From: Aquibium carbonis
Lineage (GTDB): Bacteria; Pseudomonadota; Alphaproteobacteria; Rhizobiales; Rhizobiaceae
DNA: 34,383 bases
Reading direction: 5' to 3'
NCBI RefSeq assembly: GCF_003970795.1
Contig: NZ_RWKW01000100.1
Coordinates: 1 to 34,383 of the forward strand
This document shows, piece by piece, positions 17,054 through 34,383 of the stretch (position 1 is the stretch's first letter; each line of letters starts with the position of its first letter). The notes under the pieces were generated by a model, which did no database searches, had not been told where the DNA came from, and worked only from the letters and a program-made list of their open reading frames with translations. The position numbers were made by a program, and so were the translations under genes.

Positions 17054-17542
17054 GTGACGACACTACCGCAAGAGGCGCGCGCCCATGTCGCGGCGAAGGC
17101 GCTCGCCATCCGCCAGGCGTCGATCCGCGCCGCCTTCTTCCTGGCGACGGGCCAGGACATCGAGGCCGCATTGGCCCTGGTCGGCGAGGCGCGGCTTGCC
17201 GTGCGACGGCGGCTGGAACGCCTCATCGAGCGCGAGCGGATCCGCGGCGCCGCGCGCCACTGGGCCTACGATCTCAACCGCCACATCGCCCTGAAGCAGG
17301 CGCTCGACCAGCTCGGCGGCAGCCCACGTCAGCGCAGGGGCCGCACGACGAAAAACGGCGGCGCCGGAAGGCGCCACCGTTTTGGTGGAGAAAAGACGTC
17401 GGAGCCGCTTAGCGAGACGACTTCGGCTTGCGCCCGAGGCCCATCTTCTTGGCCAGCTGCGAGCGCGCGGCCGCATAGTTCGGCGCGACCATCGGATAGG
17501 TCGGATCGAGGTTCCACTTCTCGCGGTACTGGTCCGGCGTGA
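17054..17542 (+). CDS. Conserved helical protein with an unusual C-terminal run-on
   Basis: Start is GTG at 17054 with GGAGG six bases upstream. The first about 95 residues look like a real protein: [77 protein letters not shown]. It is all-helical, rich in Arg and Ala and without membrane spans. After Leu-Gly-Gly the frame runs on through a transcription terminator hairpin (17351-17383) and 134 bases into the convergent mucR gene, giving a Ser/Arg/Pro-rich tail that looks non-coding. Possibly the original stop was lost. A true length near 95-110 residues is likely. No family name is recognised. It sits between the DnaA-like operon and mucR, a place suggesting a regulatory role. Confidence 0.6.
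17351..17383. terminator. Bidirectional hairpin, probable mucR terminator
   Basis: AACGGCGGCGCC (17354-17365), loop GGAA, and GGCGCCACCGTT (17370-17381) form a twelve-base-pair stem with one G-U or A-C mismatch depending on strand. On the minus strand it ends in a T-run (17351-17355 complement) 26 bases after the mucR stop, so it is a good terminator for mucR. On the plus strand a TTTT follows, and the run-on frame of the 17054 gene passes through it. Confidence 0.82.
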
Positions 17543-17837
17543 GGCTGTAGTGCGTCATCAGGTGGCGCTTCAGCGACTTGAAGTGCTTTCCGTCCTCGAG
17601 GCAGATGATGTAGTCGTCGTGGACCGACTTCTTCGGATTGACTGCCGGCTTCGGCTTTTCGGCCGGCGCCTGTTCGGCGGTCGTGCCCACCCGGCCGAGC
17701 GCGGCATGGATGTCGGCGATGAGGTTCGGAAGTTCGGACACGGGAACGGGATTGTTGCTGACGTAGGCGGCAACGACGTCGGCGGTCAGCTCGATGAGCA
17801 TGTTGCCCTGAGTCAGGTTCGACTCGGATAGTTCCAT
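17409..17837 (-). CDS. mucR: MucR/Ros family transcriptional regulator
   Basis: A 142-residue regulator of the Ros/MucR family, which controls exopolysaccharide, motility, virulence and cell-cycle genes in Rhizobiales. The N-terminal oligomerisation half is [31 protein letters not shown]. The zinc-finger half is [22 protein letters not shown] followed by [13 protein letters not shown], with candidate ligands Cys79, Asp82, His92 and His96. Asp replaces the second Cys of a classical finger, as known for MucR and some Mesorhizobium homologs. The ATG at 17837 (MELSESNL) was chosen since the open frame upstream to 17942 is poorly coding. The long A+T-rich leader (17838-18124) suits a MucR-type autoregulated promoter. 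A terminator lies at 17351-17383. Confidence 0.94.
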
Positions 17838-17942
17838 AATGATCAGGCCCCAGTTAGTTAGCTTGTGGTTTGTAATCGGCGTTCTAAGCGCCGGTACGTA
17901 TGGGAACGCGAAAATGTCGATGAACGACTCGCCTACCATCAC

Positions 17943-17973
17943 GATAAATGGGACACGACAGTTACCAAGTCAA
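17943..17973 (-). promoter_or_regulatory. Candidate mucR promoter
   Basis: Reading the minus strand, TTGACT (17968-17973) is followed by 18 or 19 bases and then ATTTAT or TTTATC (17943-17949). This resembles a -35/-10 pair, about 100 bases upstream of the mucR ATG. The surrounding DNA is strongly A+T rich, the kind of DNA MucR binds, so autoregulation is plausible. Spacing is slightly long. Confidence 0.38.
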
Positions 17974-18124
17974 TTATGAATGATGAGATTACAGAAAAAT
18001 AATGTAACAACATGTTTTAGTGGTTCATGATCTTTCTGAACTGCAACTTTCGCGAGATGTGTGCAGCATTCGAATAAAAGTCCCGAAACATTCATCCACG
18101 TGTCTGGCGTGCGACTGGTTCCGA

Positions 18125-18475
18125 TCATTCTTTCTGATGAGACCCACGGGGTGGCATCTCGTCGTGAACTGATCCTTCCCAAAGCGGATAGCCCGCTGCA
18201 TAGGCCGCCTTGGCCAGCAGATGGGCCGAGATCGGCGCCGTCATCAGGAAGAAGACCACGCCGGCAAGCGCCCGCGAGGCAACCGCCGTGTCGTCTGTGT
18301 AGACCGCCACCGCGATCAGCATGACGCAGGCGCCGAGCGTTCCGGCCTTCGAGGCGGCATGCATGCGCGTGTAGAATTCCGGCAGTCGAAGAAGACCGAC
18401 GGAAGCAACGAGCGCGAAGGCCGCGCCGATGACCAGAAGGATGCCGGTCAGGTAGTTGGTGATGATGTCCGTCAC
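18125..18475 (-). CDS. mnhG: Mrp Na+/H+ antiporter subunit G
   Basis: A 116-residue integral membrane subunit (MnhG/MrpG/PhaG) of the multi-subunit Mrp cation/proton antiporter. The family motif [19 protein letters not shown] is at about residues 30-48, flanked by three hydrophobic spans ([50 protein letters not shown]). The C-terminal tail is short, hydrophilic and cytoplasmic. The ATG at 18475 overlaps the stop of mnhF (ATGA), showing translational coupling. It is the last gene of the seven-gene operon. Downstream (17838-18124) is the A+T-rich leader of mucR, which runs on the same strand. Confidence 0.93.
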
Positions 18476-31568: not shown

Positions 31569-32279
31569 ATGACCGGACGTACGACTTCCAACGGAGGCGT
31601 TTCGAGGCGCTTCCTCCTGACCGCGGGCGCGATCGGCGTCACCCAGCTCGCGCTATCCGCCTGCACCACATCGCGTCCCATGCCGCAGCTGCCATCGCTG
31701 CCGCGCTTCGGCGACGAGAGCTATGGCGGTTTCGACCCGGCCCAGATCTACGCCGCGCGCAGCGATGGCGGGTTCAACATCCCGGCCGTGCCCTACCAGA
31801 AGATCCCGGCGCGCTTCCTGCGCCAGTATGTCTCCGATCCCACCGGCGAGGCGCCGGGGACCATCGTGGTCGACACCTCGAAGCACTTCCTCTATCTCGT
31901 CCAGCCGGGCGGGCGGGCGCTGCGCTACGGCGTCGGCCTCGGCCGCGCCGGCTTCGAGTGGTCGGGCCGCGCCGTCATGCAGTGGAAGCGCGCCTGGCCG
32001 ACCTGGACGCCGCCGGCCGAGATGATCGCGCGCCAGCCCGAGCTGGCGAAGTACAGTGCCGAGAATGGTGGCATGCGGCCGGGCCTCGACAATCCGCTCG
32101 GCGCCCGAGCGCTCTACATCTTCAAGGACAATGTCGACACGCTCTACCGCCTGCACGGCTCGCCGGAATGGTTCTCCATCGGCAAGTCGGTCTCGTCGGG
32201 CTGCGTGCGCCTGATCAACCAGGACGTCATCGACCTCTACGACCGCGTCCCCAACAAGACGCCGATTCTCGTTCGGTAG
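31569..32279 (+). CDS. L,D-transpeptidase (YkuD), Tat/lipoprotein-type signal
   Basis: A 236-residue cell-wall enzyme that makes meso-DAP to meso-DAP cross-links or attaches proteins to peptidoglycan. The N-terminus has a twin-arginine-like motif (SRRFLLTAGAIG) followed by a lipobox-like LSAC with Cys32. The YkuD domain starts at GTIVVDTSKHFLYLVQPGGR. Catalytic residues are His196 in LHGSPEW and Cys212 in SSGCVRL. The ATG at 31569 is preferred because the signal follows directly; an in-frame ATG at 31488 would add 27 basic residues. Several Ldt copies are common in Rhizobiales. Confidence 0.9.
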   Translation: MTGRTTSNGGVSRRFLLTAGAIGVTQLALSACTTSRPMPQLPSLPRFGDESYGGFDPAQIYAARSDGGFNIPAVPYQKIPARFLRQYVSDPTGEAPGTIVVDTSKHFLYLVQPGGRALRYGVGLGRAGFEWSGRAVMQWKRAWPTWTPPAEMIARQPELAKYSAENGGMRPGLDNPLGARALYIFKDNVDTLYRLHGSPEWFSIGKSVSSGCVRLINQDVIDLYDRVPNKTPILVR

Positions 32280-32648
32280 AGGTTCGCCGAAACACGGGTT
32301 TTCCCAAGCGCGGGTTTTCTCAGGCGGGTCAGGGGTTCCAACAGTTGGGGCGCGATCGCGGCCGGAGTGTTGGAACTTGTGGCGCCATCGGTGGCTGGCA
32401 AGCGATAAGCGGGGGGCAACCGAGCCGCGTCGAAAAGGGTCGGGATGGCGGGTTTCGACGACGTTCTAGCCGTTCATTTTCCGAATGCAAATTGCCAGAA
32501 GCTGCCTTTCAACCGCCTTCATCCGAGACGGCTCCACGCAGTGAAAGGGATGCATTTGCCATTCGATCGATTGTCGGGGTAATGCCGTCCTCACGCTACG
32601 TTCGAAAGATTAGGCCTGCCTTTGTGAGAAAGGGAAGTAGAGGCAAGC
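32280..32648. other. Intergenic region before the Shedu gene
   Basis: These 369 bases contain no convincing gene. The left part is G+C rich and holds the repeated CGGGTTTTC (about 32295 and 32311) and an inverted repeat at 32335-32376. From about 32450 the base composition turns A+T richer, as in the Shedu gene, which suggests that the edge of a transferred segment lies here. No tRNA, integrase site or target duplication could be recognised. Confidence 0.45.
32335..32376. repeat. Inverted repeat with 24-base loop
   Basis: GTTCCAACA (32335-32343) and TGTTGGAAC (32368-32376) are perfect nine-base inverted arms with a G+C-rich loop that includes GCGCGATCGCG. It lies 56 bases after the L,D-transpeptidase stop. 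No T-run follows, so a Rho-independent terminator is doubtful; a recombination or protein-binding site is also possible. Confidence 0.6.
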
Positions 32649-33896
32649 CTATGGGCTTGGCTTCGTGATAACGGTCGCACCGCCCAGGGCAACAATCGTG
32701 TTGTCGAGCCGGCGAAGCAGGTCATCGTATGTGATGATGTCCATCATGTTCGCATACTGACGTTTGATCACCTCGAAGTCGAGCAGGTGCCCGTCGGTCA
32801 TCGCGGCACCACTGATCTGGTCCCGCCCCACGATGATAATTGCCTTCGGATTGGCGATACGGATTTTCATGCCAGGCGGCAGATGGGTTGAGTACTCCGT
32901 CGTCAGTGCCTTCTCGCCAGCAACGCCCCACTTCGACAGATGGAAAAGGTATTTTTCTGCCTGCATGATACTGCCGGACAGCTCCGAGGTCGGGATGCTG
33001 TTCCCTCGATACTTGCTCTTCTGCAGGATTTTGTCGTCAAATGGCTTCTTCACCTCGATGACGTCAATATTGCCGTTTGCATCTACCAGGGCTATGTCGA
33101 TGTATCGAGAGGTTTTCTTGGTGGAGTCCGAGTAGTAGTCGTTGATAGTGACGTTCTCCAGGACCTTAATGTACTTCGGGAAAAGGAGCGGCAAGAACGA
33201 GATCATCATCTTCTGCCACTCGCCCTCGGACAGTTTTGTTTTCTTCTCGAGAGCCTCTTTAATGTGGTCTCGGATGATGATGTATTTTTCGATCTCCAAT
33301 TCCTTGAGGAACTCGAGATCGATTTTGGCCGATTTGGAACCTGACATTTTCTTGTTCAGGTAAGTCTCATAGCGGCCTTGAGCATCCTTCAGGCCATCCA
33401 CATAACCGGCCAGGATCGTGTGCACCCGAGCACCGGCATACCGGGTGATTTCACCTGTGCTGGGAAACCTCTTCAGGAGGTCCTTGAAAACGTCTATCGG
33501 AATAGCTGAAGGGTGCGTCCCGCCGACATAGATTGGATCGGTAGTTTCTAAAAGTTCGCTCAATCGTCCGAAAATGGAGATGTTGCGATAGGCGGCGAAG
33601 AGCTTGCGCTCCCACTTGGTACCCACAGGCATAAACACGTCATTGTCGATACCCAATTTGCGCCCCGCTATGCGCATGTACGTCCCGTCGATCTCAGCAA
33701 AATTGAAAACGTACTCATACTTGCCAAAATCGGTTGTATCAGTGGGCGGGTCCAAAAGGTCCGCCTTTTCAAAGTAAAATACACCGGTGATAGGAACGGC
33801 GCCCTTCTTCTTGAGGTCTTCCCACACCCACTCGTTCCCGCCATATTCTGTGCTGTACGCTAGCTCTAAACCTTTGGCGGTAGCTTTAATTTTCAA
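32649..33896 (-). CDS. Shedu-family (DUF4263) anti-phage nuclease
   Basis: A protein of 415 residues. The C-terminal half fits the Shedu SduA nuclease domain (DUF4263), a PD-(D/E)XK fold. The pre-core helix is EGEWQKMMISFLPLLFPKYI (227-244 region), followed by the active-site strands SRYIDIALVD with Asp267 and VIEVKKPFDD with Glu281 and Lys283. Later parts are ELSGSIMQAEKYLFHL, then KAIIIVGRD and FEVIKRQYANMMDIITYDDL, ending in LLRRL, all typical of the family. The N-terminal half (about 1-190) is not recognised and probably is the sensing domain. Shedu proteins act alone, cleaving phage DNA upon infection. Codon use is much richer in A and T than the neighbours, a sign of horizontal transfer. 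It has no partner gene. Confidence 0.86.
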   Translation of the reverse strand: MKIKATAKGLELAYSTEYGGNEWVWEDLKKKGAVPITGVFYFEKADLLDPPTDTTDFGKYEYVFNFAEIDGTYMRIAGRKLGIDNDVFMPVGTKWERKLFAAYRNISIFGRLSELLETTDPIYVGGTHPSAIPIDVFKDLLKRFPSTGEITRYAGARVHTILAGYVDGLKDAQGRYETYLNKKMSGSKSAKIDLEFLKELEIEKYIIIRDHIKEALEKKTKLSEGEWQKMMISFLPLLFPKYIKVLENVTINDYYSDSTKKTSRYIDIALVDANGNIDVIEVKKPFDDKILQKSKYRGNSIPTSELSGSIMQAEKYLFHLSKWGVAGEKALTTEYSTHLPPGMKIRIANPKAIIIVGRDQISGAAMTDGHLLDFEVIKRQYANMMDIITYDDLLRRLDNTIVALGGATVITKPSP

Positions 33897-34204
33897 TTCT
33901 CGTCCCCCGATCTGCAGGGAACACTAGATGAGATTTCGCGCCATTGCCAAGGCTTCATGCGTTCTTGAGCGCAATTCTAGCGGTGCGCGCTCACGACATA
34001 GGACTGTGGGCCTAGTACGACCGCTTGGGGCCTGGACGGGCGGCGTCGCCCTGATCGCACCAGTCGATCAGGTAGAGGTGTCCATTGTCGCAACTTTGGC
34101 TTGAAATTGGCAAACCCACCGATGTCTGCTTTCTTCGAAATTCTTCCAGAACAGGCCATTCCGCTCTCCCACCCCATCTCAGCCATCTAGGCCAAAGCGC
34201 CCCC
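33897..34204. other. Region between Shedu and HerA-like genes, possible remnant
   Basis: These 308 bases lie upstream of the Shedu gene and downstream of the HerA-like gene on the same strand. They must include the Shedu promoter; no clear -35/-10 pair was recognised. A minus-strand frame ending at 34012-34014 is open for about 60 codons back to the HerA-like stop and contains CDNGHLYLIDWCDQGDAARP, which looks protein-like, but has no start codon with a ribosome site. It may be a decayed gene fragment at the insertion edge, or chance. Confidence 0.35.
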
Positions 34205-34383
34205 CTACCGCTTCAAGCTCCCCAAGATCCCCCGGATCAGCGCCCGGCCGAGCGAGGTGCCCACCGAGCGCACCACCGACTTGACGGCCGCCTCGGTGAC
34301 GGTCTGGCGGTTCGAGGCTCGCGGGCGCGGGGCCGAGGGGGCGCGGGGTGCGGTGGTGCGCGAGGGGGCGCGGGTGGTGGGCG
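34205..34383 (-). CDS. HerA-like helicase/ATPase (DUF853), C-terminal end
   Basis: The window ends inside this gene. The visible 58 residues begin in a Pro/Thr/Arg/Ala-rich linker (PTTRAPSRTTAPRAPSAPRP) and end in the conserved tail NRQTVTEAAVKSVVRSVGTS followed by LGRALIRGILGSLKR and the stop at 34205-34207. That tail is characteristic of the DUF853 / HerA-like helicase domain family in Proteobacteria. The ATPase domain lies outside. The gene is G+C rich like the core genome and appears to be chromosomal housekeeping flanking the Shedu insert. HerA-like ATPases are sometimes linked to DNA-end processing, but this DUF853 type is common in genomes without defence partners. Confidence 0.8.
   Translation of the reverse strand, partial: PTTRAPSRTTAPRAPSAPRPRASNRQTVTEAAVKSVVRSVGTSLGRALIRGILGSLKR

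What the first reader, a model, noticed from the sequence alone, without database searches (positions are those of the whole stretch)
32649..33896. Lone Shedu-type nuclease in an A+T-rich insert
The reading frame has a clear PD-(D/E)XK core (Asp267, Glu281, Lys283) and the DUF4263 pattern, with an N-terminal half of about 190 residues that I do not recognise. Shedu is an established single-gene anti-phage family, and its N-terminal domains are variable and thought to set specificity. The insert sits between core genes and differs in codon use, so it is probably a recent defence acquisition. The N-terminal half could be a new sensor type.
Basis: partly seen in the sequence, partly recalled or inferred. 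Interest (0 to 1): 0.78.

Follow-up and report, generated by a model that had tools for sequence, protein, structure and literature searches.

The report
Ordinary EcSduA-type Shedu defence nuclease
This is one more copy of an already solved single-gene anti-phage nuclease (Shedu, the type that grips free DNA ends), sitting in a small variable slot of a bacterial chromosome; its supposedly unknown front half matches the known DNA-end clamp.

Summary
In detail: window 32649-33896 (- strand, TTG start, 415 aa) is an open gene whose C-terminal part matches Pfam SduA_C/DUF4263 (116 bits, cut-off 27), with D267, E281 and K283 in place. The proposed novelty does not hold. The protein is 61% identical (247 of 406 aligned positions) to E. 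coli SduA (8PS4; 8PS5 bound to DNA), and residues 1-190 searched alone hit 8PS6, the crystal structure of that N-terminal domain, at 1.3e-54. PADLOC's SduA model PDLC04067 matches nearly end to end at 654 bits. Same-type genes lie on plasmids, in prophages and in other Proteobacteria. No match was found in the 4 other congeners or in 396 other genomes sampled from the order at E <= 1e-20. It occupies a convergent slot between an L,D-transpeptidase and a HerA-type gene, where three of four congeners carry other genes. Most likely it binds free phage DNA ends with its N-terminal clamp and nicks them with the PD-(D/E)XK core, as reported for the E. coli protein. A new member of a known kind; low interest.

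The parts
32649..33896 (-). sduA: EcSduA-type Shedu nuclease, 415 aa, TTG start
33345..33851 (-). N-terminal DNA-end-clamp domain, residues 16-184 (homologous to 8PS6)
   Evidence: phmmer of residues 1-190: 8ps6_A 1.3e-54 over residues 16-183, 8ps4_A 4.2e-54 over 22-184; PADLOC SduA 230 bits; no Pfam match
32715..33230 (-). SduA_C / DUF4263 PD-(D/E)XK nuclease domain, residues 223-394; D267, E281, K283
   Evidence: PF14082 116.3 bits, coordinates; residues
31569..32279 (+). Left flank: YkuD L,D-transpeptidase, convergent with sduA; conserved in the genus
   Evidence: PF03734 6.4e-22; best match in each of the 4 other congeners at 81-88% DNA identity; 1.7-kb alignment through this locus in all four at 75-87%
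34205..34383 (-). Right flank: 3' end of a HerA_C gene, cut off by the contig end
   Evidence: 81-89% DNA identity over 116-139 bp in 3 of 4 other congeners, where G002's gene is HerA_C by Pfam; the window fragment itself was not scanned; stop position read
32335..32376 (.). 42-bp palindrome GTTCCAACAGT-N20-ACTGTTGGAAC (one mismatch) after the transpeptidase gene; a feature of the slot, not of sduA

Best explanation
The gene encodes an EcSduA-type (type I) Shedu protein. Inferred mechanism, carried over from the E. coli protein: a homotetramer whose N-terminal clamp domains hold free double-stranded DNA ends, such as those of injected or recombining phage DNA. [quoted passage not shown] Shown here: sequence homology over nearly the full length, conserved catalytic residues, single-gene layout, unusual composition, patchy distribution. 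Inferred: tetramer, end binding, nicking, phage defence.
For: 61% identity (247/406) to E. coli PI7 SduA, whose 408 residues align to the 8PS4/8PS5 chain with no difference that I could see in the printed alignment. phmmer of the window protein to 8PS4: 1.1e-160. N-terminal half to 8PS6: 1.3e-54. PADLOC SduA 1.5e-197 over 403 of 407 model positions. 42 of 190 N-terminal and 94 of 196 C-terminal columns are invariant among the window protein and 8 full-length relatives (of the 13 rows four were dropped: L005 cut, L009 and L010 interrupted, L025 frameshifted). Foldseek's three best PDB hits are 8ps5, 8ps4 and 8ps6. The mechanism of EcSduA is taken from a review (PMC12904381, passages seen).
Against: No activity was tested. 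The N-terminal half is more divergent (47% to E. coli) than the C-terminal half (73%), so end preference or phage range may differ. The structure model is weak (mean pLDDT 65.9, pTM 0.47) and its superposition on 8PS4/8PS5 is poor (TM 0.46-0.48, rmsd 17.6), so the fold match rests partly on sequence. Expression is not shown: of the two promoter-like sites found, only the one at 34113-34084 lies upstream on the gene's strand, and two is one standard deviation above the shuffled mean.
Confidence: 0.88

Rival explanations
1. The N-terminal half is a new sensor type unrelated to known Shedu N-terminal domains.
For: No Pfam family matches residues 1-190 at E up to 1; it is more divergent than the nuclease half.
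Against: 8PS6 at 1.3e-54 and PADLOC SduA at 230 bits for residues 1-190 alone; 46-52% identity to the N-terminal halves of the 8 full-length relatives.
Confidence: 0.01
2. A DUF4263 nuclease working with an unseen partner, or with an enzymatic N-terminal domain such as the GHKL ATPase of VcSduA.
For: Shedu N-terminal domains are diverse; VcSduA has a GHKL domain (PMC12137116, passages seen). The contig ends 487 bp upstream of the start codon, so genes beyond the HerA_C gene are not seen.
Against: Pfam finds no ATPase or other enzymatic domain in residues 1-190; the neighbours are a transpeptidase and a HerA_C gene kept in congeners without sduA; in the four annotated records read (P2-EC31, two plasmids, E. 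coli PI7) the neighbours differ.
Confidence: 0.03
3. A degraded or silent relic of a past insertion.
For: TTG start; no clear promoter; some relatives are broken: the Noviherbaspirillum copies match only from residue 251 and the P2-EC31 record matches in two frames.
Against: Full-length open frame that aligns with 8 intact relatives along both halves, with D267, E281 and K283 kept; a purine-rich GGGGGA stretch just before the TTG.
Confidence: 0.08

Closest known systems
Escherichia coli SduA (EcSduA; PDB 8PS4, 8PS5, 8PS6), type I Shedu
   Same: Homology over nearly the full length, 61% identity, same two-domain layout, same PD-(D/E)XK residues, single gene.
   Different: N-terminal half 47% and nuclease half 73% identical; nine extra residues at the C-terminus; lies in a chromosomal slot of an unnamed GC-rich bacterium, whereas the E. 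coli PI7 copy lies in a prophage.
SduA genes of Aureimonas altamirensis, Pararhizobium arenae, Pseudomonas thivervalensis and P. citronellolis (L004, L008, L003, L006)
   Same: 61-64% identical over residues 1 or 2 to at least 405.
   Different: Other hosts and loci; function not tested here.
Bacillus cereus Shedu (PDB 8TI8, 8TI9)
   Same: Similar fold by Foldseek (E 3e-5 to 3e-3 for seven chains).
   Different: 16-18% identity; no sequence match by phmmer at E up to 1.
VcSduA (type I-D Shedu)
   Same: DUF4263 nuclease domain (PMC12137116, passages).
   Different: GHKL ATPase N-terminal domain, not found here.

Membership tests
Shedu (SduA) | SduA_C / DUF4263 domain over its curated cut-off | tested here: met
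   116.3 bits against 27
Shedu (SduA) | PD-(D/E)XK catalytic residues | tested here: met
   D267, E281, K283 present and the same in the window protein and 8 of 8 full-length relatives; their catalytic role is inferred from the motif
EcSduA-type (type I) Shedu | N-terminal domain homologous to the EcSduA DNA-end clamp | tested here: met
   residues 16-183 to 8PS6 at 1.3e-54
EcSduA-type (type I) Shedu | single-gene system | tested here: met
   flanked by a YkuD transpeptidase and a HerA_C gene that congeners keep without sduA; the contig ends 487 bp upstream of the start codon
EcSduA-type (type I) Shedu | homotetramer | not testable with these tools
   only a monomer of low confidence was predicted
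[quoted passage not shown] protects against phage | not testable with these tools
   needs the bench
type I-D Shedu (VcSduA-like, GHKL N-terminus) | N-terminal GHKL ATPase domain | tested here: not met
   no Pfam match in residues 1-190 at E up to 1

The most novel reading that the evidence does not exclude
The slot, not the nuclease, is the unusual part: a 42-bp palindrome next to the transpeptidase gene marks an integration hot spot that takes up single cargo genes (sduA here, NTP_transf_8 with or without a further frame in congeners), with the palindrome multiplying along with the cargo. Against it: G001 has cargo without a palindrome, and two genomes of other genera (G035, G108) have the palindrome without evident cargo, which a simple terminator or binding site of the transpeptidase gene explains as well.
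Probability: 0.06. Interest if true: 0.45.

Novelty: new member of a known kind. Interest (0 to 1): 0.13.

Why it matters
It adds a further host to a defence nuclease whose structure and mechanism are already published, and it shows the single-gene spread of the EcSduA type across plasmids, prophages and chromosomal slots. It does not open a new question about Shedu sensing.

Tried and rejected
New sensor domain: rejected, because residues 1-190 searched alone hit 8PS6 and the SduA models. NCBIfam gave no family. The nuclease half alone also gave a NERD match (0.0053, 17.7 bits, under its cut-off of 22.1), not taken as evidence. No tRNA in the window and no Rfam family at gathering scores, so no tRNA integration site was seen. 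No long direct repeats bound the insert: only 14-nt pairs were found in 32200-34383. The structure prediction came out weak with a 6-row alignment and adds little beyond sequence. A literature search for 'GSU2403' with 'nucleotidyltransferase' found 0 papers.

Full report
Observation. The frame at 32649-33896 (- strand) is real: 415 codons from a TTG to a stop, none inside. Its C-terminal half carries SduA_C/DUF4263 at 116.3 bits against a cut-off of 27, the only such match in this draft genome of 188 contigs. The gene is poorer in GC (51.3%, GC3 67.8%) than four neighbours (61-70%, GC3 88-94%).

Identity. PADLOC's SduA model PDLC04067 matches residues 2-404 at 654.5 bits. phmmer against the PDB finds two distinct sequences: 8PS4/8PS5 ('Shedu effector protein', residues 22-406, 1.1e-160) and 8PS6 (residues 14-183, 9.3e-54). 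Residues 1-190 alone still hit 8PS6 (1.3e-54), 8PS4 (4.2e-54) and the SduA models (230 and 179 bits); Pfam has no match for that half, which may be why it looked unknown. The SduA of E. coli PI7 aligns to the 8PS4 chain over all 408 residues with no difference that I could see; the window protein is identical to it at 247 of 406 aligned positions. Over residues 1-190 identity to that protein is 47%, over 210-415 it is 73%. Among the window protein and 8 full-length relatives 42 of 190 N-terminal and 94 of 196 C-terminal columns are invariant; of the 13 rows four were dropped: L005 (cut by a contig end), L009 and L010 (interrupted) and L025 (frameshifted record).

Structure. AlphaFold2 with a 6-row alignment gave a weak model (pLDDT 65.9, pTM 0.47). 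Foldseek ranks 8ps5 (E. coli SduA bound to DNA), 8ps4 and 8ps6 (its N-terminal domain) first; B. cereus Shedu chains 8ti9 and 8ti8 follow, with VC1899 (1xmx) and Card1 (6xl1) among them. TM-scores to 8ps5 and 8ps4 are only 0.46-0.48 with rmsd 17.6, so the domains are not packed reliably and the ranking leans on sequence. The sequence match carries the argument.

Distribution. Relatives: 8 loci in genome contigs from 27 pattern matches (Pseudomonas, Aureimonas, Zoogloea, Serratia, Pararhizobium, Noviherbaspirillum), 7 of 72,556 plasmid records (5 covering at least 80%), 1 of 50,697 phage records, P2-EC31, 62 of 5426 E. coli genomes at DNA level (none covering 80% of the query), and 10 loci in viral contigs from 72 pattern matches. 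In E. coli PI7, the one E. coli copy read, it lies between a tail-fibre assembly gene and a tail-sheath gene of a prophage, and the P2-EC31 record calls its site the Z-region. A second defence-enriched P2 locus that holds fun is described in PMC9519451 (passages); that this is the same place is my inference. In a sample of 397 genomes of the window's order only its own has the gene at E <= 1e-20, and 1 of 61 (its own) among close relatives at E <= 0.001; the two samples overlap.

Locus. The left flank, a YkuD L,D-transpeptidase, is found in 4 of 4 other congeners and the right flank, the end of a HerA_C gene, in 3 of 4 (the fourth, G003, is 69% complete). Between them G002 holds an NTP_transf_8 gene, G004 an NTP_transf_8 gene and a 211-aa frame without Pfam match, and G001 an AI-2E transporter gene. 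G000 shows no NTP_transf_8 match. So sduA sits in a variable, convergent intergenic slot. This supports horizontal acquisition; it gives no date.

Palindrome. A 42-bp palindrome follows the transpeptidase gene here (32335-32376), with 2 copies in G002 and 3 in G004, and none in G001 or G003, at up to 3 mismatches. Among 199 genomes sampled from the family 7 have it at up to 2 mismatches, 5 of them in four other genera. Of the four of these read, three have it at the transpeptidase/HerA junction (genes named by eye) and one between another converging pair. It belongs to the slot and not to sduA. A terminator or a binding site is the plain reading; a cargo hot spot is the bold one.

Mechanism. 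A 2026 review states that EcSduA forms a homotetramer whose N-terminal clamp binds DNA ends and that end binding leads to nicking at a fixed distance by the PD-(D/E)XK domain; T6 escapes by mutating UvsW (PMC12904381, passages). With 61% identity over both domains the same mechanism is the best inference. Not shown here: oligomer, end binding, nicking, defence, expression.

Verdict. A genuine but ordinary member of EcSduA-type Shedu.

Noticed in passing
window 32335-32376; L021 2621-2662 and 2689-2730; L022 2925-2966, 4024-4065, 4092-4133; L034-L036 1501-1542: A 42-bp palindrome GTTCCAACAGT-N20-ACTGTTGGAAC with conserved arms and variable centre lies after the YkuD transpeptidase gene: 1 copy in this genome, 2 in G002, 3 in G004, 0 in G001 and G003, all in this slot. 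It occurs in 5 further genomes of four other genera among 199 sampled; of the four read, three have it at the transpeptidase/HerA junction (L034, L035, L036, genes named by eye). In G002 and G004 the cargo gene starts 4 bp after a copy. Terminator, binding site or something else: unknown.
   Followed up: partly
L037 1501-1542: In G032 a two-mismatch copy of the same palindrome lies between the converging ends of an ABC-transporter ATPase-like frame and an Lrp-like frame (names by eye), not at the transpeptidase gene.
   Followed up: no
L036 867-1532: In G174 the slot holds a further 221-aa frame of unknown kind that overlaps the palindrome at its start.
   Followed up: no
L009 3607-6471 (L010 not read upstream): The sduA of Noviherbaspirillum denitrificans matches only from residue 251; just upstream lie 505-aa and 285-aa frames that look like IS21-type IstA/IstB (by eye). 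A second such partial copy lies on a 4.8-kb contig.
   Followed up: partly
L025 (AJ512677.1): In the P2-EC31 record sduA matches in two frames, so the annotated 362-aa 'putative lysogenic conversion protein' ends early relative to its relatives; sequencing error or real frameshift.
   Followed up: no
window 17409-18475: Another GC dip of the window (57%) holds ordinary genes: a Ros/MucR regulator and a Na+/H+ antiporter subunit.
   Followed up: yes
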